From positions 1 to 36,494 of the forward strand of contig JAGAOS010000040.1 in the NCBI GenBank assembly GCA_017623575.1: 36,494 bases of DNA, in the 5' to 3' direction. The translations under genes were made by a program, and so were the position numbers. The notes under the pieces are model-generated. The model did not search any database and was not told where the DNA came from. It saw only the letters and a program-made list of their open reading frames with translations. Positions 2,852 through 36,322 of the stretch are shown here, piece by piece; position 1 is the stretch's first letter; each line of letters starts with the position of its first letter. This DNA comes from Clostridia bacterium. GTDB taxonomy: Bacteria > Bacillota > Clostridia > Oscillospirales > Acutalibacteraceae.

Positions 2852-3970
2852 TTGGCAGATACGCAAAAAAATTCTGCGGGTAACACTGCAGATGCACAAA
2901 AAAGCGATGGCTTTGGCACTAAAAAACGTATTTTGTGGACTATTGTTTTTATAGTTATCGCGGCGCTTAGCATATGGGCAGTTATTTCCCAAACAGGAAA
3001 TTTTTCTTTTAAAAGCTTTGCTGAGTTTGTAAAAAATTCTAATCCCTACTGGCTTGCAGGGGCATTTATTTCTATGCTTGGCTTTATATTTTTTGAAGCC
3101 TTTGCACTTATTTACATCTGCCGCGCCTTTGGTTACAAAACGGGACTAAAAAGCGGCTTTGTATATTCGGCGGCGGATATATATGTTTCGGCAATAACAC
3201 CCTCGGCAACGGGTGGTCAGCCCGCAAGCGCATATTTTATGATGAAGGACGGTATGCCCGGTACCTTTGTAACGGCGGCGCTTATATGCAACCTTGTAAT
3301 GTACACCTCTGCAATGGTTGTTTTGGGATTAATTGCCGTGCTTTTAAGCCTTAAAACATTTTTTGGGTTTGGAATTATTTCAAAGCTGTTAATAGCTTTG
3401 GGTATAGTTGCACAGATCGGCTTGTTAGTTTTCTTTATAATGGTTTTACTTAAAAAAGGACTTTTAGAAAAGCTTTGCGCATCGGTGCTTAAATTTTTAG
3501 GTAAGCTTCATATTATCCGTAAGGTGGATAAAAAGCTAGCCAAGCTTCAGAAAAAAATGGACGCATATTCAGAACATACAAGCCTTCTTCGCGGTCAAGG
3601 CAAGCTGCTTTTTATGGTATTTATTTTTAATTTGTTACAAAGATTTTGTCAAATTATGGTAACCCCCCTAACCTACCTTGCCTCAGGCGGAGAGCTTTCA
3701 AAGGCGGTTGATGTTTTCATAACGCAGGTTTATGTTGTTCTGGGTTCAAACTGTGTTCCCATTCCCGGAGGAATGGGCGTAACCGATTACCTTATGCTGG
3801 ACGGTTTTGAAAAGCTGGGTATTGCAAACTATGAATTTTTAGAGCTTTTCAGCCGATTCCTTTCTTTCTATATGTGCATAATAATTTGTGGAATTACAAT
3901 TTTGGTAAGCTGTGTTACCTATTCAGATAAAGCAAGAAGCAAAAAACAAAAAAAGCAGGAGGCAAAATAA
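2852..3970 (+). CDS. UPF0104 / LPG-synthase transmembrane-domain family protein (flippase-like)
   Basis: This 372-residue polytopic protein matches the integral membrane domain found in MprF (lysylphosphatidylglycerol synthase) and in stand-alone YbhN-type proteins. The family motifs are visible: TPSATGGQP at about 116-124 and PIPGGMGVTD at about 303-312. A short hydrophilic N-terminal segment is followed by a first membrane helix at about 27-46, and the C-terminus is a lysine-rich tail. There is no aminoacyltransferase domain, so it does not itself make lysyl-PG; a lipid flippase or lipid-handling role is inferred. The start is a TTG at 2852, eight bases after GGGG/AAAGGGG, and only two bases after the preceding stop, indicating coupling in the phospholipid operon. 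Confidence 0.85.
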   Translation: MADTQKNSAGNTADAQKSDGFGTKKRILWTIVFIVIAALSIWAVISQTGNFSFKSFAEFVKNSNPYWLAGAFISMLGFIFFEAFALIYICRAFGYKTGLKSGFVYSAADIYVSAITPSATGGQPASAYFMMKDGMPGTFVTAALICNLVMYTSAMVVLGLIAVLLSLKTFFGFGIISKLLIALGIVAQIGLLVFFIMVLLKKGLLEKLCASVLKFLGKLHIIRKVDKKLAKLQKKMDAYSEHTSLLRGQGKLLFMVFIFNLLQRFCQIMVTPLTYLASGGELSKAVDVFITQVYVVLGSNCVPIPGGMGVTDYLMLDGFEKLGIANYEFLELFSRFLSFYMCIIICGITILVSCVTYSDKARSKKQKKQEAK

Positions 3971-3974
3971 AACT

Positions 3975-4670
3975 ATGATTGGCATTTATGATTATACTGT
4001 TGTGTTAACCTACCTTTCCTTGCTTTCGGCGGGAACGGGAATAGTTGTTGCCCTAAGCGGAAACGGACATCCATTTTTAGGAATATTCTTTTTGCTGTTC
4101 TGCGGACTTTGTGACGCTTTTGACGGCAAGGTGGCATCCACCAAAAAGAACAGAAGTGATACCGAAAGAAAATTCGGTATACAAATAGATTCCCTTTCTG
4201 ACCTTATTGCCTTTGGTGTTTTACCCGCCTGCATTGGCGCGGCATTTATAAGGGTTTCTGTTGGACTTAACAACATATGGCAAAACGGCACTAACTGGGT
4301 TCCGCTTTTGTTAAAGGGAATAATATTTGGTATTTTAATACTTTACATACTTACCGCAATGATTCGTCTTGCCTATTTTAATGTTACTGAGGAGGAGCGC
4401 CAAAGCACCGAAACGGGAGCCAGAAAATATTATCTTGGCTTGCCTGTAACCTCTGCATCTATAATATTTCCGTCGGTTGCGCTGTTTCAGTATCTTTTCC
4501 CCGCAGATTTAACCTGGGTTTACATAGCCGCAGTAATTATTACGGGAATTTTGTTTATTACTCCCTTTAAAATTAAAAAATTAAAGCTAAGGGGAATTCT
4601 GGTGCTTGTTGGAATAGGCGCCGCCGAATTCATTGCTTTAATTGTAGCCTTTATTTTAAGGCACAGATAG
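3975..4670 (+). CDS. pssA: CDP-diacylglycerol--serine O-phosphatidyltransferase
   Basis: The enzyme joins CDP-diacylglycerol and serine to give phosphatidylserine in the membrane. The 231-residue polytopic protein carries a CDP-alcohol phosphatidyltransferase motif at about residues 46-76: the first part reads CDAFDGKVAS and the second FGIQIDSLSD, with the conserved aspartates in place. Two departures from the standard DGxxARx8GxxxDxxxD motif are clear: the Arg is a Ser (codon TCC), and the spacer to the Gly is about four residues longer than in Bacillus subtilis PssA. The start is the ATG at 3975, after AGGAGG at 3957-3962; a longer in-frame extension upstream overlaps the previous gene and lacks a good site. 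Psd follows immediately, which supports the serine specificity. Confidence 0.88.
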   Translation: MIGIYDYTVVLTYLSLLSAGTGIVVALSGNGHPFLGIFFLLFCGLCDAFDGKVASTKKNRSDTERKFGIQIDSLSDLIAFGVLPACIGAAFIRVSVGLNNIWQNGTNWVPLLLKGIIFGILILYILTAMIRLAYFNVTEEERQSTETGARKYYLGLPVTSASIIFPSVALFQYLFPADLTWVYIAAVIITGILFITPFKIKKLKLRGILVLVGIGAAEFIALIVAFILRHR

Positions 4671-4679
4671 GATTTTTAT

Positions 4680-5507
4680 ATGGAAAAAAATAACAAAGGC
4701 GCTTTAAATTTTTTGTACAATACGGCTTTGGGCAGATTGCTTTTAAAGCCCCTTTGCAGCAGAGCCCTTTCAAAAATGTGCGGAGCTTTTTTAAGCTGTC
4801 GTCTTTCAAAGCCCCTTATAAAGGGATTTGTTAAAAGCAACGGCATTAAACTTAGCGATTATGAAAGCGATAATTATAAATGCTTTAATGATTGCTTTTG
4901 CCGTAAAATTAAGCCCGAGCTTCGCCCCATAGATACCGAAAAAACTCATTTTATATCCCCCTGTGACGGACTTCTTAGTGTTTATAATGTTACCGATGAA
5001 ACAGTTCTGCCAATAAAGCAGAGCAGTTATACGGTAAGGGAGCTTTTGGGCGGCGACCCCGTTTGTGAAAAATACAGGGACGGCGTATGCCTTGTTTTCA
5101 GGCTTTGTGTTGACCATTATCACAGATATTGTTATTTAGATAATCTTAAAAAAGGTGAAAATATTTTCATAAAGGGCAGGTTGCATACCGTTCGCCCCAT
5201 TGCCTTGCAACGATACCCTGTTTTTGTTCAGAATTGTAGGGAATACACCGTTATGGAAACCGAGAACTTTGGCACCGTTACACAAATTGAGGTTGGCGCT
5301 ATGCTGGTTGGAAAAATTAAAAACAACCATGGGTCGGGTGAGTTTGCAAGGGGTGAGGAAAAGGGAATGTTTTTATACGGCGGAAGTACAATTGTTGTGC
5401 TTGTGGAAAAGGGCAGGCTGAATATTAACAAAACCTTTTTTGAAGAAACCCAAAAGGGAAATGAAACCCCCGTTAAAATGGGAGAATGTTTGTTTACCGC
5501 AATTTAA
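4680..5507 (+). CDS. psd: Phosphatidylserine decarboxylase proenzyme
   Basis: Psd converts phosphatidylserine to phosphatidylethanolamine, completing the pathway begun by the adjacent pssA. The 275-residue length fits the family. The self-cleavage site is visible as YGGST at 233-237, where Ser236 would become the pyruvoyl cofactor at the new alpha-subunit N-terminus. An upstream FRLCVDHYHRY block holds the His of the family catalytic triad. The gene starts at 4680, nine bases after the pssA stop, with only a weak AGGA site overlapping that stop, so coupling is likely. A strong terminator follows at 5534-5579. Confidence 0.93.
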   Translation: MEKNNKGALNFLYNTALGRLLLKPLCSRALSKMCGAFLSCRLSKPLIKGFVKSNGIKLSDYESDNYKCFNDCFCRKIKPELRPIDTEKTHFISPCDGLLSVYNVTDETVLPIKQSSYTVRELLGGDPVCEKYRDGVCLVFRLCVDHYHRYCYLDNLKKGENIFIKGRLHTVRPIALQRYPVFVQNCREYTVMETENFGTVTQIEVGAMLVGKIKNNHGSGEFARGEEKGMFLYGGSTIVVLVEKGRLNINKTFFEETQKGNETPVKMGECLFTAI

Positions 5508-11799: not shown

Positions 11800-12546
11800 T
11801 TATTTTCTAAAAATAAATAAATACTCGTGTGCTATAAGCAAAAAATTATATTTTACGCTATTGGTTTTCCAATATCCTGTTGCCTTACAGTTGTGCTGTT
11901 CTTTAATAATCAGCTCTTTAAGTTTAAATCCTGCTTCTTCAAAGATACGCATAACATCAAAAGACATCGGTATCATATGACCTTTTTGGCGTGTATCGCC
12001 CATAAGAACGGCACAGAACTTGTCCTTTTTCAGAACACGGTAGCTTTCCGCAGCGACTTTTTTCATTTCCTCAAGGAAATCTTTTACTTTTAACAAAGAC
12101 AAATCTTCAGGAATATCCTCGCTATACCTAATAATATCAGCATACGGCGGATGTGTGCAAATAAGATCAATGCTGTCATTCGGGATAAAGTCAAGGTTTC
12201 GTGCATCGCCTTTATGAAGATACACCTTGCCGTCTGCCCCTTCATGCTCAAAATCAGTTTTTTCTTTGCAACGAGCAAGTGCAACATCATTCACATCAAC
12301 GCCAATGATATTCCGATTAAGCAACTTTGCTTCTACTAACGTTGTGCCGCCACCTGCAAATTGGTCAAGGACTAAGTCATTTTCTTTTGAATATCGGAGC
12401 AGAATGTTTCTAGGGATATATGGCGACCAATTACCACGCCATTTAGCGTCATGGGTAGCCCAATCTCCTCGAGTTGGAAAAGACCAGTGTGTAGTCATTT
12501 CCAACTCGAAATTTTCCGGCTCCCATTTTGTTATTTTTTTAGCCAT
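11800..12546 (-). CDS. DNA methyltransferase (N6-adenine or N4-cytosine type, HPPY motif)
   Basis: A 248-residue SAM-dependent DNA methylase. The SAM-binding motif I is DQFAGGGTT at 61-69 and the catalytic motif IV is THPPY at 131-135. Because motif I comes before motif IV, the order differs from the common beta-class enzymes. HPPY is an uncommon variant of the (D/N/S)PP(Y/W) core, so whether the product is m6A or m4C is not settled. There is little room for a long target-recognition domain. Its ATG overlaps the stop of the DpnII-family gene by one base (12546), so it is the last gene of the operon. It may protect against the neighbouring PD-(D/E)XK nuclease, or be the second (DpnA-like) methylase of the DpnII system. 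Confidence 0.85.
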   Translation of the reverse strand: MAKKITKWEPENFELEMTTHWSFPTRGDWATHDAKWRGNWSPYIPRNILLRYSKENDLVLDQFAGGGTTLVEAKLLNRNIIGVDVNDVALARCKEKTDFEHEGADGKVYLHKGDARNLDFIPNDSIDLICTHPPYADIIRYSEDIPEDLSLLKVKDFLEEMKKVAAESYRVLKKDKFCAVLMGDTRQKGHMIPMSFDVMRIFEEAGFKLKELIIKEQHNCKATGYWKTNSVKYNFLLIAHEYLFIFRK

Positions 12547-13424
12547 TATTTAAAAACCTCGCTAATTATACCATCTTCCAAATCTTTAATACTATAGATG
12601 TGATGCATAACATCGAAAGTTTCTTCCAGGTTGTTCCTAGCGCTTGTCCAACCTTTGCCATCAGTAAACCAAACAAATGTAAAACCGTCAATTTCTTCGG
12701 TTTCCCACGCAAGAGTTTTATAACTACGTGCGGTTTCGTTTAATTTACTACCGCCACTTCCATAGAAATTGGTTTCGATACCATAAATCATATTTGGTGT
12801 CTTAATGACAAAATCAAAGCGTTTTTCCATTTTGCCTTGATTGGAAATAGCGGATAAGTCTATATTCCATTTATCTGTAATTTGGTGAATATACATTTCT
12901 TTGAAGTAATTAACGCCTTTTATGAAACCTGCTTTTTGAATAAAGCTCTCAACCAAATCTTCCATAAGGTGACCGCCGCGATTTTTGCGGCCGTTTGAAT
13001 CAAGACCTGTTTCAACACCCGTTGCGTAATCAACCAAATTGTTTACGATATGGTTTTCTAATAAATCGAACAATCCGGTTTCACGCATAAAGTATTTATA
13101 ACGTTCATAATGAGCATGGCTATTAGGCGGATACTTTCCAAAATCAAATTGGAATAAGTGTCCACCGTTTTCGTCCTGACAGTATATTTCACTAGCCCTA
13201 ACCGCTAATAGTAGCGGAATGCACTTTAATACTTCGGGATATTTTCTCATTAAGTTTTCAAAATCAAGTTCAATATTTTTAGAGCCGATTAGGGAATTTA
13301 AGATGTTAAGTTCAACCTTGATACTATCCACATTTCGATGAACTTTCTCAAAACCTATGTAATAACCATAGTCTGCGATACTGTCACGAAAGCCTGACAG
13401 CCACGCACTAAAATCTCTTGACAT
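12546..13424 (-). CDS. dpnII: Type II restriction endonuclease, DpnII/MboI family
   Basis: The 292-residue length and sequence match DpnII-family endonucleases, which cleave unmethylated GATC. The family block GRKNRGGHLMEDLVE lies at 145-159. The nuclease core follows, with RFDFVIKTP (Asp204) and GIETNFYGSGGSKLNETARSY (Glu217, Asn219), a variant PD-(D/E)XK centre with ETN in place of ExK. The ATG is preceded by AGGAGG at 13433-13438 inside the end of the upstream gene. It sits four bases after that gene and overlaps the next methylase by one base. The GATC specificity is inferred from the family and from the Dam-type methylase in the same operon. Symbol used in the family sense. Confidence 0.9.
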   Translation of the reverse strand: MSRDFSAWLSGFRDSIADYGYYIGFEKVHRNVDSIKVELNILNSLIGSKNIELDFENLMRKYPEVLKCIPLLLAVRASEIYCQDENGGHLFQFDFGKYPPNSHAHYERYKYFMRETGLFDLLENHIVNNLVDYATGVETGLDSNGRKNRGGHLMEDLVESFIQKAGFIKGVNYFKEMYIHQITDKWNIDLSAISNQGKMEKRFDFVIKTPNMIYGIETNFYGSGGSKLNETARSYKTLAWETEEIDGFTFVWFTDGKGWTSARNNLEETFDVMHHIYSIKDLEDGIISEVFK

Positions 13425-13427
13425 CGC

Positions 13428-13964
13428 TCATTCCTCCTCGTTGTTAGGTGGCACAGGCAAACCCAACTTTGTAAGCGGTATATATTCAAAGTAGTAGTGA
13501 CAATGCATACTTATAATATAATCCAAAACATCCTTATACTTGGGATCTTTGAACCAATCCGAAAGCAGATAGATGTATTCTACATCAATATTGAGCTGTG
13601 CCATCAACTTCTGATACTGCTTTCTCTTAAAATCACAAGTCTGCAATTTTTCATCAACAGACCCTGCAACTTGCTGATATTTGCATTCGATAATAAAAAG
13701 CGTGTTATTTATGATTACATAAATGCTATCATCCGGCAAAAGTTTTTTGGAAATAATCTTTGTCCAATCAACGCCGACTTCTTTTAAATATCTATAAAAT
13801 CCGTGTTTTTTGAATATGCGAGCAACCTTTGCGTCATTATAAAACACAATGCCATCAGTCACACGATATCCATCTTGACTATTTAAGAAGGTTGCCAAAT
13901 CAGTTTTTCCTTCAAATACAAGCCCTGTTTTGGTATTTCCTCCGCCTTTTCCATTCTTTATCAT
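13428..13964 (-). CDS. PD-(D/E)XK nuclease, putative second restriction endonuclease
   Basis: From the ATG at 13964 the product has 178 residues. This start follows GGGAGA by seven bases and falls just after the stop of the zinc-ribbon gene; a longer frame to 14072 would overlap that gene by 86 bases and lacks a site. The core reads PDDSIYVI at 77-84 and FIIECKYQQVAGSVDEK at 90-106, the PD...ExK arrangement of PD-(D/E)XK nucleases with catalytic candidates Asp78/79, Glu93 and Lys95, preceded by Glu18. A glycine-rich start (MIKNGKGGGNTKTGLVFE) resembles small type II restriction enzymes, but I cannot name the family or site. It is embedded between the Dam-type methylase and DpnII, which is unusual. 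Confidence 0.72.
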   Translation of the reverse strand: MIKNGKGGGNTKTGLVFEGKTDLATFLNSQDGYRVTDGIVFYNDAKVARIFKKHGFYRYLKEVGVDWTKIISKKLLPDDSIYVIINNTLFIIECKYQQVAGSVDEKLQTCDFKRKQYQKLMAQLNIDVEYIYLLSDWFKDPKYKDVLDYIISMHCHYYFEYIPLTKLGLPVPPNNEEE

Positions 13965-13986
13965 AACGTTTCTCCCAAAAATATCT

Positions 13987-14166
13987 TTATTTAATCTTGC
14001 AAGGCTTTCCGGCTTCACAATGAGCCGAACGACATTCACGACAATATGACTGTGGTATATAACGACCATCACCCATATTTCTGTATCCGAATTCTTGCTC
14101 TATATCATCCTTACCGTATGCTGTCTTTCCACAGCAAGGGCATTGTGCATATTCTCCGTATGGCAT
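13987..14166 (-). CDS. Small zinc-ribbon protein (59 residues)
   Basis: A short gene not usually called. The ATG at 14166 follows a perfect AAGGAGG (14174-14180) by seven bases, and the frame ends in TAA at 13987. The protein begins MPYGEYAQCPCCGKTAYG and has two cysteine pairs, C9xxC12 (CPCC) and C42xxC45 (CREC), plus Cys50 and Cys56, the pattern of a zinc ribbon. It lies 13 bases after the Dam-type methylase and 22 bases before the PD-(D/E)XK gene in the same operon. It could be a small DNA-binding or specificity partner of the nuclease, or a controller; no role is established by sequence alone. Confidence 0.75.
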   Translation of the reverse strand: MPYGEYAQCPCCGKTAYGKDDIEQEFGYRNMGDGRYIPQSYCRECRSAHCEAGKPCKIK

Positions 14167-14178
14167 ATATAAACCTCC

Positions 14179-15249
14179 TTAGAAATTGCTAATAAGCAAT
14201 TCTTTAATTTTGCCTCTAGCCTCGCTGTTGCAGTTAATCATTCGTGTTGCTTCAACTCGTTTGATTTTATGAGCCGAATAAATGTTATCAAAGAAATCAT
14301 CTTCTGGGTTTGAATTTTTCGGATCCGAATTGCTAATTACAACCTTTGCGCCTTTTCTATGCATATCATCAACAAATCGTGCAAGTTCAATCTGTTCTTC
14401 ATCATTAAACAAGTTCTCCGTATATGCAGTAAAACTTGCTGTATCGGTAATAGGTCTGTACGGAGGATCAAAATAAACAAATGTATTTGCGTCAATAAAG
14501 TCAGCCGACTCTCTGTAATCTCCACATACAATAGTAACTCTTTGCAATTTCTCTGATACTGCTCTAAGATTGTTTTCATCGCAAATCATAGGATTTTTGT
14601 ATGCTCCCATTGGAACATTAAACAACCCTTTTTTGTTTACACGGAACAAACCATTGAAACAAGTTTTATTCAAAAAAATCATCAATGCTGCTTTTTCAAT
14701 ATTAATATTCTCGTTTCCGTTGACCTTTAAATCATTAAACCGTTCTCGTTTTTTCATATAATATGCTTTACGATTATCCGTATCCAACGGAATGAAATCA
14801 TTCTGCATAGCATAAAGCATCTCAATTAGTGCATCAATGTCATCACGAATAATGCGATATGTATTGATAAGCTCAGCATTAATATCGCTGATATAAACTT
14901 CTTCTAAATCGTATTTGCTGAGTATGTCAAATAAGACAGCACCCCCTCCTACGAACGGCTCAGCATATTTTGTAATACGGTCATCTGTAAAAGGATAGTA
15001 GCATTCAATTTCTTTAAGGAGCTGACCTTTACCGCCTGCCCATTTTAAAAAAGGTTTAACTGCTTTTTCTTCACTAATATTATGACGGGTACTTCTTGCA
15101 TCAATAGGTTTTTGCGCATTGATAGGAATTAACCACATGTTTCCTTTTCTTTCTGCCAAAGGAATTCTTTTTTTAGAGCAGAGAATTGCAACGCGTCTTT
15201 GTGAAATGCCCCATTTATTTGCGGCTTCTTTTGCGGACATAACTTCCAT
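14179..15249 (-). CDS. dpnM: DNA adenine methylase (D12/Dam class) with N-terminal helix-turn-helix
   Basis: A 356-residue fusion. Residues about 1-50 are a MerR/excisionase-like helix-turn-helix (SAKEAANKWGISQRRVAILC, then a wing with GNMWLIP). From about 65 it is a D12-class N6-adenine methylase: FLKWAGGKGQLL (motif X), EPFVGGGAVLF (motif I) and VYFDPPY (motif IV). Enzymes of this class paired with DpnII methylate GATC. The typical class length is about 270-290, so the HTH is extra; it may let the methylase regulate its own operon. The ATG at 15249 follows GAGGTG by six bases; a GTG nine bases upstream overlaps that site. It is the first gene of the operon, so protection is made before cleavage. 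Confidence 0.9.
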   Translation of the reverse strand: MEVMSAKEAANKWGISQRRVAILCSKKRIPLAERKGNMWLIPINAQKPIDARSTRHNISEEKAVKPFLKWAGGKGQLLKEIECYYPFTDDRITKYAEPFVGGGAVLFDILSKYDLEEVYISDINAELINTYRIIRDDIDALIEMLYAMQNDFIPLDTDNRKAYYMKKRERFNDLKVNGNENINIEKAALMIFLNKTCFNGLFRVNKKGLFNVPMGAYKNPMICDENNLRAVSEKLQRVTIVCGDYRESADFIDANTFVYFDPPYRPITDTASFTAYTENLFNDEEQIELARFVDDMHRKGAKVVISNSDPKNSNPEDDFFDNIYSAHKIKRVEATRMINCNSEARGKIKELLISNF

Positions 15250-15278
15250 ATATTTCACCTCTTTTGAATCTAATTATT

Positions 15279-17630: not shown

Positions 17631-19214
17631 TTATTCCAAAGATTCAAACACACTTTGGGCGGCTGTTTTGTATGTATAGTCCTTGTGGAAAACGCTGGAT
17701 GTTCCCACAACAAACACATCTGCGCCCGCCTCATACATTTTAGGGATATTTTCAAAGCTGCAATTTCCGTCTACCTCTAACAAAATATTGCTATGACCTG
17801 TGCTATCCAAAAGGTTTCTTGCCCTTTTTATTTTATCCAATGCGCCGCTTACAAGCTTTTGACCCGCAAAGCCGGGATTTACCGTCATAATAAGCAGCAT
17901 ATCAATATCATCCAAAAGCTCCTCTACTGCCGACAATGGTGTACCCGGATTAATGGCAAGACCTGCCCTTGCGCCCTTTGCCTTTATAAGCGAAAGGGTG
18001 CGGTGGATGTGTCGACTTGTTTCAAAATGAACTGTGACAATATCGTCAGGGCGAAGGGGCAGCATTTCAATTGCAAGGTCGGGATTTTCCACCATAAGGT
18101 GAATATCCAGCGGGATTTCCGACCCACCGCTTATAGCCTTTACCGTTTCGGTAGAAATCATATAATTTGGCACAAAATTGCCATCCATCATATCAATATG
18201 AAACAGCTTTATACCCGCATCGGCAAGGGCTATAAGCTCCTCACCCAGATTAAGCTGATTAGCGCACATAAGGGATGCCGAAAGCACAGCCTCGCGGTTT
18301 ATAACATTTTCCTTGCCAAAGAGGGCGGCACCTATCATAGGGGCATCCTCCCGCCATTTAGCAAGGGCGATTTTAAGCTCCTGCTGACCCTCAGTTTTAT
18401 AAGAATGTTCTTTTATATACTCCACAAAGGGATTTAAATAAAGCTCCATTTGAGCAGATAATCCGCCGCTGAAAATAAGGCAATCGGGCGAAAGCAAATT
18501 TATTGCCGAAACTATAACCTTACCAAGCATATTTATTGCCTGATTTATGGCAAAGTGGGCATCTTCATCACCATTTTGAGCGGCATCAAACAAATCGCGG
18601 GCGGTAGCATCCTCGCCGTAAAATTCCTTTGCCGTCATATCCAGACCCTTGCCTGCGGCATAACACTCCAAACAGCCGTTTTTACCACATCCGCAGGGTC
18701 TGCCCTGCTCAGCTACGGGAATATGACCAAGCTCACCCGCCGAAAGAAGGGCGCCGTGATAAATTTTTCCGTCAATTACAAGACCCGTACCTATTCCCGT
18801 ACCCAAGGTAATGCATATAAGGGCTTTGGCATCCTTGCCGTTGCCCGCCATATATTCGCCGTAGGCACCCGCTCTGGAATCCTGCAAAACCTTTGCCGAA
18901 ATACCTGTAAGCGCTTTAAAAATTTCAGCGACAGGGGCGTCATACCAGCCAAGATTAGGCACGAATTTTGCCACCGTAAAATCGGCTGAAACAGTACTCG
19001 GTACACCTATGCCAACACTTATAAGCTCCCTTTTTTGAATACCCATTTCCTCGCATAGCAAATCAAGGGTAGCGGCGGCAAGGCTTAGCACCGATTCACA
19101 ATCCTTTTTGGCAGGAACGGGTGTAACTTTGCTTGCAACAAGCTGATTTTCACCGTTTAAAATGCCAATGTTTATTTTAGTTCCGCCAATATCAATACCT
19201 ACATAATATTTCAC
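17631..19214 (-). CDS. ROK-family sugar kinase fused to D-allulose-6-phosphate 3-epimerase
   Basis: A 527-residue two-domain enzyme. Residues 1 to about 310 are a ROK kinase: phosphate loop DIGGTK (8-13), the conserved Asp112 (QDSRAGAYGE), and the zinc motif with His164 and CxCGxxGC (Cys174, 176, 181). From about 322 to the end is a ribulose-phosphate-epimerase-type barrel: HIDMMDGNFVPN, IPLDIHLMVENPD, and VDGNCS...AGADVFVVGTSSVF. The VDGNCS form resembles AlsE (allulose-6-phosphate 3-epimerase) more than Rpe, which has VDGG. It could phosphorylate a sugar such as allulose or allose and convert the 6-phosphate towards fructose 6-phosphate. The start is a GTG at 19214, seven bases after GGAGG. 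There is no stop or frameshift between domains. Confidence 0.88.
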   Translation of the reverse strand: MKYYVGIDIGGTKINIGILNGENQLVASKVTPVPAKKDCESVLSLAAATLDLLCEEMGIQKRELISVGIGVPSTVSADFTVAKFVPNLGWYDAPVAEIFKALTGISAKVLQDSRAGAYGEYMAGNGKDAKALICITLGTGIGTGLVIDGKIYHGALLSAGELGHIPVAEQGRPCGCGKNGCLECYAAGKGLDMTAKEFYGEDATARDLFDAAQNGDEDAHFAINQAINMLGKVIVSAINLLSPDCLIFSGGLSAQMELYLNPFVEYIKEHSYKTEGQQELKIALAKWREDAPMIGAALFGKENVINREAVLSASLMCANQLNLGEELIALADAGIKLFHIDMMDGNFVPNYMISTETVKAISGGSEIPLDIHLMVENPDLAIEMLPLRPDDIVTVHFETSRHIHRTLSLIKAKGARAGLAINPGTPLSAVEELLDDIDMLLIMTVNPGFAGQKLVSGALDKIKRARNLLDSTGHSNILLEVDGNCSFENIPKMYEAGADVFVVGTSSVFHKDYTYKTAAQSVFESLE

Positions 19215-19244
19215 AAAAGCGCCTCCTTTGAGGTTGTTTACTTC

Positions 19245-19273
19245 ATTATACAAATTAGTAGCTTTAAATTCAA
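19245..19273 (-). promoter_or_regulatory. Sigma-A promoter of the kinase-epimerase/GH92 operon
   Basis: On the minus strand TTGAAT (19268-19273) and TATAAT (19245-19250) lie 17 bases apart, giving a start near 19238 and a short leader before the GTG at 19214. Confidence 0.72.
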
Positions 19274-30358: not shown

Positions 30359-30449
30359 ATTATTCACTCCTTTGCTTTTATTTTGCTACAAAAAACAAAA
30401 AATATACAAAAACAATTTAAATTTTCAGAAAAGAAAGGAAGATTTTTTT

Positions 30450-31922
30450 ATGAAAAAAAATCAAATTCTCGCTTTCGATTTTGGCGCATCCAGTGGTCGC
30501 GCAATGCTCTCCAGAATTGAAAACGGCAAAATGGTAATTGAAGAAATTCACCGTTTTTCAAACGACCCCGTTTTGGTAAACGGTCACCTTTATTGGGATG
30601 TTCTTCGCCTTTTTCACGAAATAAAGCAGGGCATTACCAAGGCAACAAATGCCGGCGGCTTTGACAGCATTGGTATTGATACCTGGGGCGTTGACTACGG
30701 TCTTTTAGATAAAGATGGTCAGCTTATTGGCAACCCTTACAACTACCGCGACATTCGTACCGACGGTATGCAGGAGGAGTTTTATAAGCTTATGCCCCGC
30801 GAGGAGCTTTATGCCGAAACAGGTATTCAGCAGGTAGACCTTAACACAGTTTATCAGCTTATGGCGGCAGTAAAATACCGTCCTCAGGATTTGGCGCAGG
30901 CAGAAACCTTGCTTTTAATGCCCGACCTTTTTGCATACTTTTTAACCGGTGCAAAAAGAATTGAGTATACAAACGCATCCACCACAGGTCTTTTAGACCC
31001 CAACACCAAGGATTGGAACGAAAAGGTTTTGGCAAAGCTTGGTCTTAAAAAGGAGCTTTTTGGCAAAATTATTAAGCCCGGTGAGATTTACGGAAACCTT
31101 CTTCCCGAAATTTGTGAGGAGCTTCACTGTGACAGCGTTCCCGTTATTGCAGTTGCCACCCACGATACCGCATCGGCAGTAGCCTCGGTTCCCACAGCGG
31201 AAAAGGATTATGCCTACATAAGCTGTGGCACCTGGTCGCTTTTTGGTACCGTTAATGATGAGCCTATTTTAACCGAGGAATCCCGTCAGATTGGCTTCAC
31301 ACACGAAGGCGCATCCGATGGAAAAATCCGTTACCTTAAAAATATTATGGGTCTTTGGCTTATTCAACAGTCCCGTCAGGAGTGGAAACGACAGGGTCTT
31401 GATGTTTCCTTTGATGAGATGGAAAATGCCGCAAAGGCCGCTGAGCCCTTTAAGTGCTTTGTTGACCCCGATGCCAAGGATTTTGTTGCCCCCGGCAATA
31501 TGCCCAAGCGCGTTCAGGAATTCTGCAAGCGTACAGGCCAGTATGTACCTCAGGATATGGGCGAAATTCTTCGTTGTATTTATCAGAGTCTTGCATTTAA
31601 ATATCGCTATGCAACCGAAATGCTGGAAAAGCTTATTGGTCATGAGCTACCCGTTATTCATATGATAGGCGGCGGTATTAAGGATCAACTCCTTTGCAGT
31701 ATGGCGGCTGATTACTGCAAAAAAACCGTTATGGCAGGCCCTGTTGAAGCCACCGTTACAGGTAATGCCGCGGTTCAGTTTATGTCCTTTGGTGAGTTCA
31801 AGGATTTAAGCCACGCCAGAAAGGTTATTAAAGATAGCTTCCCCATTAAGGAATACACCCCCGACACCTCTTTAGAGCTTGATGCCCACTTTGAGGAATT
31901 TAAAAAGTACATTGGTAAATAA
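30450..31922 (+). CDS. rhaB: Rhamnulokinase (FGGY family)
   Basis: This 490-residue cytoplasmic kinase phosphorylates L-rhamnulose to L-rhamnulose 1-phosphate. It has the ATP-binding start DFGASSGR at 10-17, DTWGVDYGLLDKDG near 77-90, YRDIRTDGM near 99-107, HDTASAVASVP near 235-245 and MIGGGIKDQLLCSMAADYC near 405-425. These are the RhaB forms; the related L-fuculokinase is less likely. The start is the ATG at 30450, after AAGGAAG. The kinase is alone: neither the isomerase nor the aldolase of the pathway is in the window, but the convergent GH106-related gene could release rhamnose. A strong terminator follows. Confidence 0.9.
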   Translation: MKKNQILAFDFGASSGRAMLSRIENGKMVIEEIHRFSNDPVLVNGHLYWDVLRLFHEIKQGITKATNAGGFDSIGIDTWGVDYGLLDKDGQLIGNPYNYRDIRTDGMQEEFYKLMPREELYAETGIQQVDLNTVYQLMAAVKYRPQDLAQAETLLLMPDLFAYFLTGAKRIEYTNASTTGLLDPNTKDWNEKVLAKLGLKKELFGKIIKPGEIYGNLLPEICEELHCDSVPVIAVATHDTASAVASVPTAEKDYAYISCGTWSLFGTVNDEPILTEESRQIGFTHEGASDGKIRYLKNIMGLWLIQQSRQEWKRQGLDVSFDEMENAAKAAEPFKCFVDPDAKDFVAPGNMPKRVQEFCKRTGQYVPQDMGEILRCIYQSLAFKYRYATEMLEKLIGHELPVIHMIGGGIKDQLLCSMAADYCKKTVMAGPVEATVTGNAAVQFMSFGEFKDLSHARKVIKDSFPIKEYTPDTSLELDAHFEEFKKYIGK

Positions 31923-32007: not shown

Positions 32008-34941
32008 TTAAAAGAAAAGACCAAATTCTACAAAGCAGTAGGAATCTACCCAATCTTTATTTTCTCCGCCTACCCAAAGGGGCGAATTATGGAAGAAGTT
32101 TGGCGGCGCTACCCAGTAGGATTCACCCTCTGCCAGATGGAAGGGACCTAACAGATTGCGAAGATTACCTGTTACGGTTATTTCAATTTCATTTTCGCCC
32201 GCCTTTAAAAGTCCGCTTAAATCAAGGGTATAGGGCTGCCACATAACCTTGCCTGCATCTACTCCGTTTACCTTCACCTTGGTAACGGTGGAGCAAAGGT
32301 CGGCAAAGCGTATAGAACGGTTTTGAGTTTCCTCAGCCGTTAAATTAAGGGTCTTTTTAAAGGTCATACTGCCCGCAAAGAAGGGATAGCCCTGCTTTGC
32401 AATATTGCCCGTAGTTACGGTTTTGGGCGCAGAGGTAATGTAAAATCCACCGTCTACTTTTAATGCGCGTCTATCCAAAGCCTCAAAGGTACTATCGGTT
32501 TTAACACCAAAATCACCCACAATATAAACCGACTCAATCTCCATATCATAGGTGAGCTTGTTCTTCTCAGATTCAAAAATCAAAGCGTTGCGCATATTTT
32601 CATAAACTGCCTCGCTCTGCACAAATTCGCAGGAAAGCTTAACCTCATTTTTGCCCGCTTTAACATATTTGCGAATATCAATAAGGCGAAAAGCGGGGTC
32701 GTGGCAGAAGCCAAGGTCGGTTTTTGTAATTTTCTCTCCGTTTACAAAAATGTTAAAGATCTCGGGGGTTTCTACCATAAGTCGACAATTTTCAAAGCCG
32801 TTATCACGAACCTCAAAATTAAATACAACCTCGGCATTTACCTTTTTACCGTATGCGCATAAAATCTCCTGAACATCACTTACGGGGATGTTTTTAGCCT
32901 TTTGCTCACCGTTTACATACAGGTCGCAGTAGTCTAAGGTAAGGGCGTTGTTATCGGCTGAGGCAATCTGCCATTCACCATTTAAAGTTAAGGGTGTAAG
33001 CTCCTTTGCCTCAATAGCGGCAGATTTTTCGCGGTCATCACCATATACAAACACTATTAATGAGCCGCGCTTTGCAAGACATCCGTTAAAAATCAGCTCA
33101 TCACCTTTGTTTTCAAAGCAAAGGGGTTTGGTTTCGCCTGTTTCGGCATTAAAGATGCATCCGCTTTTGCCCTTAACTGTTGCCGAAAATTCAATCTCTT
33201 CATTATTGGGGTTTACAAGATAGTGCATTGTCATATTATCATCGGTAAAGCCGCGCACCAAAGAAAGCACTGTTTTTTGGTCTTTGCCCACATAATCAAG
33301 CTTGATTTTTCTTAAATTAAGGGGTACAAAATCGGCTACACATTGAAGCTTTACTATGGGGTAAGAGCCAAATACTGTCTGCCATTCATTGGTAGGCTCA
33401 CCATCAATAAGTGTGGGAAGCTTTTCAGTAAATATTACGGTACCGCCCTCATTTTCAAACTTCTTTAAAAGCTCAAAGGTGGCTCTGCCAAAGCAATCTG
33501 CAGGGGGAACAATAACCGCCTTATAGCTTTGGGTGCCTATTTTAAACACGCCGTTTTCTACACTTCCGTGTCGTTCAATAAGCTTATTATCACCTAAATG
33601 ATACTGAATTTGCGCTCTTTCAAGATTTTCCATAACCGCTTTAAGGTCGTTGCTTAGTTTATCGGTCAGGGGGCGAGCCTTGGGGTCATTGTCATTATAG
33701 GCAACCCAGCCGCTTTCAATACTGTGAAGCAGTAAAACATTATAATCTACCTCACCCTCTGCAATAAGCATACCAATACGGCTTACCATATCGTTAAAGG
33801 TGCGGTAGTCCTTCCACCAGGGCTGATGACGGTAAAGGGATGCAGGGTAATCTCTTTTGCGGATACCACGCAGACTGTATCCCTCCAAATGCTGACAGAG
33901 GTAGTTTATTCCCCTTGCCATCTGAGGTTCATAAATCCAGCGAAGCTCCTCAAAGCTTACATTCCAACCGCAAAGGGCAAAGGTTTCAGAAAGAATTTGC
34001 TTTTTGCCAAGCTGATTACAAGCCGATGTAACCTGCATAACGGTAGCAATATCGGCAGGGATTCTGCCGAGATGGTCCATACCCGGTATATCCATAAACT
34101 CATAGTTAGGCATAGCGCTACCACTGCATTGCGCGTGGAACCAAAAATCCTCCTCACAGGTCATATGACCTGTATAAAGCTGATTATGCTCCTTGCACCA
34201 GGCATAAATCTGCTCATTAAAGGCGGCGGTAAAAAGATCACGAACCAGCTTCCAATAGCGATAACGCACTGCGGCACAGCCCTCTATATCGCAAAAAAGG
34301 GCGGGCAGATTTGAAAGCAGACTGTCGCCGTAGGCTTTTTTATACTCCTCATCCAGTATAAATGACCAAGGGTAGCCATTGCGCGAAACCTGAGGCTCGT
34401 CGGTAAAAAATCCTACCATACCGCCAAGGCTTGTGCCTAAATTATCTATGTATTTTTCGTGGGTGCTTTTTAAAAATTCGGCAATAACCGCCTTGTTCAT
34501 AACATCCACATAAAAGGGGTTTACATCATAATAAAAATGATAATTTTTGCCCTCTACTTCCATATTAGCAATGGTTCTGTCGGTGATTTTGGGAGCAGCG
34601 GTTACCTCACAACGAAGATATTTTTGCTGATATTCTACACCTTTACCGTTTACGGCGCCCTGACCAAAGCCACTGGGCCAGCCGTTTTCATCATAGCCCC
34701 AAGCAAGCATACCCTTTTCGTTTGCTTTTTGGCTTGCCGCTTTTATATTATCAAACCAATCATCCTTTAAATATTCGGTTTGCAGACCACCGCGGGCATG
34801 CATAAAAAATCCGCCAAGACCTGCTTTTTCCATTAGTTCAACCTGCTCGGTAGTGGAGTCAACAGTAAGCCTTTCGTTCCAGGACCAGAATGGCGCAGGA
34901 CGGTATTTTTTAGGTGGATTTTTAAGAAATTCCTTATTCAC
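32008..34941 (-). CDS. GH106-related glycoside hydrolase (putative alpha-L-rhamnosidase)
   Basis: A 977-residue protein without a signal peptide. The N-terminal block RPAPFWSWNERL followed by AGLGGFFMHARGGLQTEYL is that of the GH106-related family (Glyco_hydro_106), and FFTDEPQ near 210 would hold catalytic acids in the barrel. A middle part (about 480-650) resembles the barrel-associated domains of such enzymes. The C-terminus (about 690-970) contains GH2-like sugar-binding sandwich modules (NPWQPYTLDL-type and GENEIEITVTGNLRNLLGP). The characterised GH106 enzymes are rhamnosidases; rhaB across the terminator supports this, but the specificity is inferred. The start is GTG at 34941, eight bases after AAAGGAAG. 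It follows the retron RT by 38 bases on the same strand. Confidence 0.82.
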   Translation of the reverse strand: MNKEFLKNPPKKYRPAPFWSWNERLTVDSTTEQVELMEKAGLGGFFMHARGGLQTEYLKDDWFDNIKAASQKANEKGMLAWGYDENGWPSGFGQGAVNGKGVEYQQKYLRCEVTAAPKITDRTIANMEVEGKNYHFYYDVNPFYVDVMNKAVIAEFLKSTHEKYIDNLGTSLGGMVGFFTDEPQVSRNGYPWSFILDEEYKKAYGDSLLSNLPALFCDIEGCAAVRYRYWKLVRDLFTAAFNEQIYAWCKEHNQLYTGHMTCEEDFWFHAQCSGSAMPNYEFMDIPGMDHLGRIPADIATVMQVTSACNQLGKKQILSETFALCGWNVSFEELRWIYEPQMARGINYLCQHLEGYSLRGIRKRDYPASLYRHQPWWKDYRTFNDMVSRIGMLIAEGEVDYNVLLLHSIESGWVAYNDNDPKARPLTDKLSNDLKAVMENLERAQIQYHLGDNKLIERHGSVENGVFKIGTQSYKAVIVPPADCFGRATFELLKKFENEGGTVIFTEKLPTLIDGEPTNEWQTVFGSYPIVKLQCVADFVPLNLRKIKLDYVGKDQKTVLSLVRGFTDDNMTMHYLVNPNNEEIEFSATVKGKSGCIFNAETGETKPLCFENKGDELIFNGCLAKRGSLIVFVYGDDREKSAAIEAKELTPLTLNGEWQIASADNNALTLDYCDLYVNGEQKAKNIPVSDVQEILCAYGKKVNAEVVFNFEVRDNGFENCRLMVETPEIFNIFVNGEKITKTDLGFCHDPAFRLIDIRKYVKAGKNEVKLSCEFVQSEAVYENMRNALIFESEKNKLTYDMEIESVYIVGDFGVKTDSTFEALDRRALKVDGGFYITSAPKTVTTGNIAKQGYPFFAGSMTFKKTLNLTAEETQNRSIRFADLCSTVTKVKVNGVDAGKVMWQPYTLDLSGLLKAGENEIEITVTGNLRNLLGPFHLAEGESYWVAPPNFFHNSPLWVGGENKDWVDSYCFVEFGLFF

Positions 34942-34979: not shown

Positions 34980-36047
34980 TTATTCTAATTCATCACGCAT
35001 CAGTATTAAAATGCCTTTTGCTTTTTTAAAATAATTGTTACCCTCGCCCTTTTCAACCGAAAGCAGATAATTTATTTTACCAATAAGTACATTTAGCATA
35101 TGGGTAGCGATCGCATTTACATCATCGCCTAAAAAGCCGTTAGTTTCATAGACAAGGCTGCTTTTTACTCCGAACTTTAAAACATAATAAATCTTTTGGC
35201 GAAGCTCACGCTTGTACTCCCTTGAAACGGTAAGCTTTTGGTTTACCGTAATGCCCGTAACACTCTGACGGGAGGCGCTTGTAACAAAGCGGGTTTTATT
35301 TTCATTTACCTCAAAATTCATATTATACAGCATTTTTTTAACCTTAACATAAAGGTGGTATAGCGGCTTATCTGAAGAAAAGGTAAGATCGTCACAATAG
35401 CGGGTGTAGCTGATTCCGCGCTCTTCACACCAATTACCAATATTATTATCAAAATTTTTCATAACTATGTTAGAAATAGCGGGGGAAGTGGGTGCGCCCT
35501 GCGGCAGAGAATCGCTACGGCAACAAAGATTTGTTAAAATAACACCTATATGCTTTGGAAAATACCTTGTATTAAAGGCGGCGCTGTAGACCTGCTCAAA
35601 GGATATACTATCAAAAAAATCGGTTATATCCATTTTTAAAAGATATTTTTTGCCAATATGCGGGTTTGCGTTATCTACTATACTCACCTTTGGTTTATAG
35701 GCGGTAGCATATTTGGAAACAGGAAGCTTCATAAGAATATTGCGTAAAATTATTGATTGACATCTTTTAAGAACACAATAGGGGGAATATAACTGCCGCT
35801 CGCCGCCGTTTTTCTTTTTTATGGTGTGGGAATGATATAAAGAATCACAACCCTTGCGAACCATACGGAACATAACACCTAAGGGAATATCTAAAAAACC
35901 GGCAAGCTGAAGTGAATCATAAATAAAAGGCAGATTATTTAAGGTTCTGAAGTTTTCTACCATTTCCAAAGCCTCAGACAAGCCGAATTTTTTTATAAAA
36001 TTTGTGTCTTCGGCACCAAACATAATATGGTTTTTAACTATTTTCAT
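34980..36047 (-). CDS. ret: Retron reverse transcriptase
   Basis: A 355-residue retron-type reverse transcriptase that would make msDNA from the adjacent ncRNA. The motifs in order are: KKKNGGERQLYSP near 77-89, NAxxH at 126-130 (retron region X), a first catalytic Asp140 (KMDITDFFDSI), LPQGAPTSP at 181-189, the YCDD catalytic box at 217-220, and VTG at 263-265 (retron region Y). There is no maturase or endonuclease domain as in group II introns and no extra fused domain. The start is the ATG at 36047 after AAGGAGG (36054-36060); an in-frame ATG at 36098 lies before that site and inside the ncRNA region. No effector gene follows; the next gene is a glycosidase 38 bases away. Confidence 0.95.
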   Translation of the reverse strand: MKIVKNHIMFGAEDTNFIKKFGLSEALEMVENFRTLNNLPFIYDSLQLAGFLDIPLGVMFRMVRKGCDSLYHSHTIKKKNGGERQLYSPYCVLKRCQSIILRNILMKLPVSKYATAYKPKVSIVDNANPHIGKKYLLKMDITDFFDSISFEQVYSAAFNTRYFPKHIGVILTNLCCRSDSLPQGAPTSPAISNIVMKNFDNNIGNWCEERGISYTRYCDDLTFSSDKPLYHLYVKVKKMLYNMNFEVNENKTRFVTSASRQSVTGITVNQKLTVSREYKRELRQKIYYVLKFGVKSSLVYETNGFLGDDVNAIATHMLNVLIGKINYLLSVEKGEGNNYFKKAKGILILMRDELE

Positions 36048-36073: not shown

Positions 36074-36281
36074 AAATCTTCCTGCAGTACAAAATCACAT
36101 AAGAAAGCGTTAGCGAATTTATAGGTCATGAAGTGACCATTTATTCGCTATAAGCGGTCTTATGAAAAGCCAATACGGGTGGCGTAACACGCAGACCGTA
36201 TTGGTAATTCCCTTTAAAACACAGGAACGGCGACTCGCCGCCCATTCTTAAAATAAGATGTACGCTACTGCAAGAAGATTT
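36074..36281 (-). ncRNA. Retron ncRNA (msr-msd), template and primer for msDNA
   Basis: Read on the minus strand. The a1 arm (36266-36281) and a2 arm (36074-36089) pair over 16 bases with one G-U. Just after a1 the AGC context puts the branching guanosine at 36265. The msr part has hairpins TCTTA/TAAGA with a TTT loop (36246-36258) and CGGCG/CGCCG (36228-36240). The msd part has a nine-pair hairpin (36196-36204 with 36170-36178) with an inner GCGT/ACGC helix, and a long second hairpin (36159-36164 with 36098-36103, then 36143-36150 with 36111-36118, then 36134-36138 with 36124-36128). The order msr, msd, RT is the standard one. Exact msDNA ends need experiment; they are expected near 36090 and 36205. 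Confidence 0.88.
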
Positions 36282-36293
36282 ATTTGTGCATAT

Positions 36294-36322
36294 ATTCTAA
36301 CACAAAGACTTTAGTTTTTCAA
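36294..36322 (-). promoter_or_regulatory. Retron promoter
   Basis: On the minus strand TTGAAA (36317-36322) and TAGAAT (36294-36299) are 17 bases apart. The predicted start near 36287 is about six bases before the a1 arm, the position expected for a retron ncRNA. Confidence 0.78.

What the first reader, a model, noticed from the sequence alone, without database searches (positions are those of the whole stretch)
36074..36322. Complete retron ncRNA and promoter can be read directly from sequence
Upstream of the RT there is a promoter (TTGAAA-17-TAGAAT) placed about six bases before a 16-bp a1/a2 inverted repeat, an AGC branch context giving a priming G at 36265, two msr hairpins and two long msd hairpins. 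The RT has the retron-specific NAxxH and VTG motifs. The co-occurrence of all elements in the right order makes this a strong retron call in a Clostridia-type genome, a group with few characterised retrons. The msd hairpin sequences are not ones I recognise from model retrons.
Basis: partly seen in the sequence, partly recalled or inferred. Interest (0 to 1): 0.9.

Follow-up and report, generated by a model that had tools for sequence, protein, structure and literature searches.

The report
Ec107-type retron without a linked toxin
This Clostridia-like genome carries a complete-looking retron, a reverse transcriptase with its RNA template, that is a distant relative of the E. coli retron Ec107 and, like it, has no recognisable toxin gene beside it.

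Summary
A promoter-like site (36322-36294), a 208-nt RNA closed by a 16-bp a1/a2 helix (36281-36266 / 36089-36074) and a 355-aa RT (36047-34980) follow each other on the minus strand. Over 14 loci (window included) 15 of 16 a1/a2 pairs show double-sided changes and 27 of 36 pairs overall; none of 500 shuffles reaches this. The RT has NAxxH, YCDD and VTG, scores best with PADLOC RT_Ec107-like and is 44% identical to the E. coli Ec107 RT over 274 residues. A covariance model built from the 14 RNAs finds the E. coli Ec107 RNA between pyrE and slmA. So this is a new, divergent member of the Ec107 (Retron-Eco5) group, next to type III-A in the tree. Sixteen III-side loci have a PRTase gene upstream; no Ec107-side locus examined does. 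None of 20 flanking proteins tested matches a defence family; a WYL regulator lies near 7 of 71 loci not on the III side, not in the window. The predicted product is a branched RT-DNA of about 125 nt. What it does without a linked effector is open. New member of a known kind.

The parts
36294..36322 (-). sigma-70-type promoter-like site TTGAAA-17-TAGAAT, TG before the -10
   Evidence: comparable site 6-22 nt before a1 in 8 of 14 loci, window included
36074..36281 (-). retron ncRNA (msr-msd), 208 nt
   Evidence: fold z -7.1; covariation; model matches in relatives and E. coli Ec107
36266..36281 (-). a1 arm
   Evidence: 15 of 16 pairs with double-sided changes
36074..36089 (-). a2 arm
   Evidence: as a1
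36265..36265 (-). predicted branch/priming guanosine (2'-OH)
   Evidence: AG invariant in 14 loci; role inferred from known retrons
36246..36258 (-). msr stem-loop 1 (TCTTATTTTAAGA)
   Evidence: single folds; not in the consensus structure, so not supported by covariation
36225..36243 (-). msr stem-loop 2 (GGGCGGCGAGTCGCCGTTC)
   Evidence: near-invariant loop; helix 2; shared with E. coli Ec107
36170..36204 (-). first msd hairpin (variable in sequence)
   Evidence: single folds; not in the consensus structure
36095..36167 (-). second msd hairpin, inner part TCACTTCATGA conserved
   Evidence: helices 3 and 4: 9 of 11 pairs with double-sided changes
36090..36214 (-). predicted template of the RT-DNA, about 125 nt; far limit placed by analogy with the 107-nt Ec107 product
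   Evidence: inference from the alignment and the count
34980..36047 (-). retron reverse transcriptase, 355 aa, ATG start behind AAGGAGG
32008..34941 (-). GH106 alpha-L-rhamnosidase-like gene, 38 nt after the RT; judged not part of the retron
   Evidence: three genomes of the genus have the orthologue with no retron in the 900 nt before it by blastn

Best explanation
A retron of the Ec107 (Retron-Eco5) group with all known parts of one. One promoter makes an RNA that carries msr-msd and the RT message. The a1/a2 helix presents G36265; the RT binds the msr (loop GGCGAGTCGCC), starts DNA synthesis from the 2'-OH of that G and copies the msd from 36090 towards about 36214, while host RNase H removes the template. 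The product is a branched RNA-DNA of about 125 nt DNA held by the RT. No toxin or effector is recognised nearby. I think the RT-msDNA complex is a genuine functional product and most likely serves phage defence with a partner encoded elsewhere in the host, as a sensor or guard. Shown by computation: anatomy, homology, covariation, purifying selection in two RT pairs, no PRTase effector beside relatives. Inferred: priming, product size, defence role, trans partner.
For: RT: PADLOC RT_Ec107-like 377 bits against 318 for RT_III-A; NCBIfam retron_St85_RT above its cut-off; nearest solved chain is the Ec86 RT; 44% identity to E. coli Ec107 RT over 274 residues. Tree: the 14 model loci plus L056 are a clade (100*) on a 64-row side (SH-aLRT 89, not starred) with E. 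coli Ec107; a 34-row side (98*) holds the 16 PRTase loci. RNA: covariation; R1 matches at E about 0.01 or better in 28 of 50 further loci not on the III side (L050 and L095 are one locus), 27 of them within 252 nt before the RT core, and in 0 of 32 III-side loci; E. coli Ec107 RNA at E 9e-9. Search of 295 genomes of the order by RNA alone: 8 with a match, 7 with an RT gene directly behind (one broken), 1 weak and not followed; four of the 7 were new. dN/dS 0.25 (G386/G423) and 0.14 (two E. coli). No trans PRTase in 10 of 11 host genomes; the one match is that genome's own III-type locus. WYL regulators within 5 kb of 7 of 71 loci not on the III side, 0 of 32 III-side; one WYL family is known from defence islands (PMC9122601, abstract).
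Against: No product was seen. The trans partner is a guess: no candidate was found, and only PRTase was searched for. Flanking genes named by Pfam are mostly metabolic and 0 of 20 match PADLOC, unlike a defence island. The WYL link was noticed first and tested afterwards, and BrxR membership was not tested. R1 misses 22 of 50 loci not on the III side. Relatives L041 (frame broken) and L046 (three stops) have damaged RTs, so the element is dispensable.
Confidence: 0.6

Rival explanations
1. A type III-A retron whose effector genes lie just beyond the contig end, 213 nt upstream of a1.
For: The window is a whole contig that ends there; III-A is the next best RT family and its PRTase lies upstream in 16 loci; the window RT keeps an N-terminal stretch that aligns with a III-A profile from residue 24.
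Against: None of the relatives examined has the PRTase, among them 9 of the 13 model relatives with more than 3 kb upstream (from the coordinates); no PRTase in the window's own genome, which is about 70% complete; the RT lies on the Ec107 side of the tree.
Confidence: 0.04
2. A selfish or neutral retroelement: makes msDNA but gives the host nothing; it persists by rare insertion at gene ends, next to or in place of transcription terminators.
For: Few shared neighbour genes and many different sites; in E. coli it stands where K-12 has the pyrE-slmA palindrome (PMC6868368 passages); L033 against G290: about 1.6 kb stands for 96 nt that hold a terminator-like hairpin; damaged copies L041, L046; in 373 of 5426 E. 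coli genomes.
Against: RT under purifying selection in the two pairs tested; one place per E. coli genome; same site in sister species G386 and G423. I know no route of mobility, though none was searched for. Insertion between genes is what survival alone would give.
Confidence: 0.25
3. A solo retron with a non-defence housekeeping role, for example in starvation.
For: Ec107 expression rises on phosphate starvation and entry into stationary phase (PMC6868368, passage citing Herzer 1996); metabolic neighbours.
Against: Patchy occurrence: 45 of 300 family genomes, own included, have any RT match, 11 others a close one.
Confidence: 0.1
4. A non-retron RT (group II intron, DGR or Abi type) with a chance inverted repeat.
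For: Pfam names only the general RVT_1 domain.
Against: Retron families score up to 377 bits, group II maturase 68; covariation.
Confidence: 0.01

Closest known systems
Retron-Eco5 (Ec107), E. coli, between pyrE and slmA
   Same: Best RT family and 44% identity over 274 residues; YCDD; RNA found by the same covariance model, same TAGCG branch site and GGCGAGTCGCC msr loop; RT directly behind the RNA; no other annotated gene between pyrE and slmA; intergenic site (YCDD of Eco5 also from a PMC6868368 passage)
   Different: Clostridia-like host; RT 355 aa against 319, most of the extra at the N-terminus; RNA 208 nt against 192; msd hairpin sequences not alike in the alignment
Type III-A retrons (PRTase, and by the literature a winged-helix protein)
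   Same: Neighbouring RT lineage in the tree; next best RT family
   Different: 16 loci have a PRTase gene upstream, of which the two scanned are PRTase_III-A; 7 of the set share a gene of about 104 aa between it and the RT (the one scanned has no Pfam match); no Ec107-side locus has the PRTase; R1 finds no RNA at E<=0.01 in 32 III-side loci
Retron-Bth1 (Bacillus thuringiensis)
   Same: A retron without obvious effector that does make RT-DNA (PMC12548924, passages)
   Different: RT unclassified there and interrupted by a group II intron; on an extrachromosomal element

Membership tests
Retrons in general | RT with retron motifs NAxxH (region X) and VTG (region Y) | tested here: met
   NANPH and VTG; N126, A127, H130, V263, T264, G265 invariant in 10 sequences; in a wider set of 14, A127 and G265 are nearly invariant
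Retrons in general | a1/a2 inverted repeat closing msr-msd directly before the RT | tested here: met
Retrons in general | guanosine at the inner end of a1 in an AG context | tested here: met
   G36265; AG invariant in 14; use of its 2'-OH not testable
Retrons in general | production of msDNA | not testable with these tools
   needs a gel or sequencing
Ec107 (Eco5) group | RT best match to RT_Ec107-like and on the Ec107 side of the tree | tested here: met
   the side has support 89, not starred
Ec107 (Eco5) group | homologous ncRNA | tested here: met
   R1 finds the E. coli RNA, E 9e-9
Ec107 (Eco5) group | no linked accessory gene | tested here: inconclusive
   GH106 gene follows, judged unrelated; upstream the contig ends; none fixed in relatives; WYL near 7 of 71
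Type III-A retron | PRTase gene upstream (with a winged-helix gene, by the literature) | tested here: not met
   no PRTase in the genome held, about 70% complete; sequence directly upstream of the window is not held

The most novel reading that the evidence does not exclude
The Ec107 group is not an oddity of E. coli but a broad lineage of retrons, from Clostridia, Erysipelotrichia and Mollicutes to Enterobacterales, that has no cis effector at all, is kept by selection, sits at gene ends next to or in place of terminators, and so either guards a host-encoded target or works by a mechanism other than toxin release.
Probability: 0.35. Interest if true: 0.7.

Novelty: new member of a known kind. 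Interest (0 to 1): 0.42.

Why it matters
A common model makes a retron a toxin held in check by its RT and msDNA (PMC12548924, abstract). Ec107 fits it poorly, since no accessory gene lies at its locus. This locus and its relatives show that retrons of that build are widespread in Clostridia and share an RNA that one covariance model can find. A set of diverged, intact members makes it directly testable whether such retrons defend at all, and with which partner. They are also possible sources of RT-DNA for editing tools.

Tried and rejected
Rfam has no matching family: nothing at gathering scores, only chance-level matches (E 0.76 or worse) at a lax threshold. Back-translated peptide search of viral contigs found no relative, yet one unannotated, unverified 4.7-kb record filed as a phage carries RNA and RT of this kind; it may be a bacterial contig. 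I considered that the rhamnosidase behind the RT is an accessory gene: rejected, since three genomes of the genus have the orthologue without the retron in the 900 nt before it and none of the 11 relatives shows it. Empty sites: E. coli K-12 is clear; G290 gives one for L033; for L034 and L036 only one flank matched, for L032 the genus search held no other genome, and for the window only the GH106 side matched, so no rule for the target site is established. Further RNA copies: none in the own genome. A trans PRTase: not found. Rows dropped: three duplicate loci (L054, L055, L086); L046, L130, L136 from the tree (broken or too short pieces). L050 and L095 are one locus and were both kept. L040, 48% identical, has no a1/a2 at the expected place in my first scan and lies outside the window clade, but R1 finds an RNA there. 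Papers on retron classification (Mestre 2020) and a retron census (Khan) are not held; type names come from PADLOC, from passages of papers cited, and from recall. I make no claim that this clade is absent from print; searches made.

Full report
What was claimed and what is there. All are present on the minus strand at the places given. One correction to the anatomy: the -10 box ends 12 nt before a1. The fold of 36074-36281 is far more stable than shuffles, z -7.1.

Is it more than chance? The RT was searched in 300 genomes of the same family (drawn from a larger group): 45, own included, have some match; 11 others (L002-L012, fetched wider as L031-L041) have an RT 47-58% identical. A scan upstream of the RT found an inverted repeat of 10-20 bp, spanning 191-208 nt and ending 21-39 nt before the place of RT residue 1, in 10 of these 11; the exception is L040. 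The arms differ in sequence. Three loci from named genomes (L051-L053) were added, giving 14 RNAs with the window (A2). RNAalifold predicts 36 pairs. On that structure 97.1% of cells are paired, 27 of 36 pairs have double-sided changes, 0 of 500 shuffles reach any of the five measures, and slid versions pair 37-46% of cells. In a1/a2 it is 15 of 16 pairs. The alignment was not fitted to the structure, but the structure is a consensus of the same rows. msr stem-loop 1 and the first msd hairpin are seen in single folds but are not part of the consensus structure.

Independent test of the RNA. A covariance model, R1, was built from A2. Over 98 loci it matches, besides the 14 it was built from, 28 of 50 other loci not on the III side at E about 0.01 or better (five of these are partial matches to the model; L050 and L095 are one locus). 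In 27 of the 28 the RNA ends within 252 nt of the RT core; in L078 it lies 1.8 kb away. None of 32 III-side loci matches. R1 finds the RNA of E. coli Ec107 in the pyrE-slmA gap at E 9e-9. In 295 genomes of the order, searched by RNA alone with strict filters, 8 gave a match. G000 and G134 were in the model. G021 was known and has a damaged RT with three stops. G386, G423, G393 and G321 were new and have an RT of 51-55% identity directly behind the RNA; G386 and G423 share one site. G370, a weak match, was not followed. The own genome has one copy.

What family. PADLOC: RT_Ec107-like 377 bits, RT_III-A 318. E. coli Ec107, Budvicia aquatica, Ruminococcus flavefaciens and an Oscillospiraceae relative also score best with RT_Ec107-like. 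The window RT is 44% identical to the E. coli Ec107 RT over 274 residues. In a quick maximum-likelihood tree of 100 RTs the window pairs with L031 (97*), inside a 15-row clade (100*), on a 64-row side (89) with E. coli Ec107, Leminorella, Budvicia, Yokenella, Lachnospiraceae, Erysipelotrichaceae and Mollicutes rows. The other main group of 34 rows (98*) has the 16 loci with a PRTase gene upstream; two of those PRTases were scanned and are PRTase_III-A. Two rows (L105, L137) lie in neither. The root was not inferred and the 64-row side is not starred, so sister to III-A is the best reading, not proof.

Neighbours. Across 12 loci no gene besides the RT is shared near the retron except a few generic pairs. 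Across 98 loci the recurrent neighbours outside the III side are transporters, shared synteny of close species, a few generic families, a pair of genes in L050/L084/L095, or a WYL regulator. Twenty flanking proteins picked from 13 loci gave no PADLOC match. Of 10 scanned with Pfam, 8 have metabolic or cell-wall names (GH3, serine dehydratase, POR, YdjC, NadA, glutaminase-like, SPOR, oxaloacetate decarboxylase beta), one is a DNA glycosylase and one has none. Behind the window RT lies a GH106 gene. For the WYL family, 7 of 71 loci not on the III side have one within 5 kb and 0 of 32 III-side loci. In 17 host genomes of about 37 Mb (my sum) there are 27 WYL genes, three of them near the retron (G021, G321, G386), where about 0.12 would be expected (expectation is my arithmetic). 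I noticed this before testing it, so it is a lead. BrxR, one WYL family, co-localises with defence systems in 48% of cases (PMC9122601, abstract read); whether these are BrxR was not tested.

Sites. E. coli K-12 has 36 nt between slmA and pyrE with the palindrome CGCCGGATGA...TCATCCGGCG; in the retron strains about 1.3 kb stands there, as PMC6868368 (passages and section 8 read) reports from older literature. The retron is in 373 of 5426 E. coli genomes, one place each, all chromosomal; I viewed the flanks of two. For L033, genome G290 shows flanks of 87% and 81% identity and 96 nt with a terminator-like hairpin where L033 has about 1.6 kb. Insertion at gene ends may simply be what survives.

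Selection. G386 against G423: RT dN/dS 0.25; two E. coli RTs: 0.14. In the first pair synonymous divergence of the RT (0.12) is lower than that of the neighbouring gene (0.40), which may mean more recent exchange of the retron.

Mechanism. By established knowledge of retrons (recalled; RNase H role also in PMC8989520 passages) the RT starts at the 2'-OH of the G after a1 and copies the msd from the base before a2. Mapping the 107-nt length of Ec107 onto the alignment gives about 125 nt here (inferred). The function step is open: no recognised linked effector, no PRTase in trans.

Limits. The contig ends 213 nt upstream of a1, so the upstream side of this very locus is unseen. No product was observed.

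Noticed in passing
window 11800-15258 (-): A type II restriction-modification cluster: methyltransferase (11800-12546), restriction enzyme (12546-13424), a 214-aa protein without match, and a Dam-family methyltransferase with an N-terminal extension (14179-15258).
   Followed up: partly
window 17631-19253 (-): One 540-aa frame joins a ROK sugar kinase and a ribulose-phosphate/allulose-phosphate 3-epimerase domain.
   Followed up: no
window 30372-31922 (+) and 32008-34941 (-): Rhamnulokinase-like gene (496 bits, under the curated cut-off of 528) facing a GH106 rhamnosidase-like gene: a likely rhamnose-use locus next to the retron.
   Followed up: no
L046 (G021) and L041 (G169): Retrons with damaged RT genes but recognisable RNA; G021 has a second RT match about 4 kb further on.
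   Followed up: partly
L036 and L048 (both G240): One genome carries both an Ec107-type retron without recognised effector and a III-type retron with PRTase and a gene of about 104 aa.
   Followed up: partly
L191 (MT838960.1) 394-1353, 1235-2512, 3436-4714: A 4.7-kb record filed as a phage carries an RNA and RT of this kind with a WYL-like regulator and an unscanned 425-aa frame upstream.
   Followed up: partly
L046, L053, L056, L092, L187, L190, L191: A WYL-type regulator within 5 kb of the retron, 33 nt from the RT in L056 and abutting the RNA in L046.
   Followed up: partly
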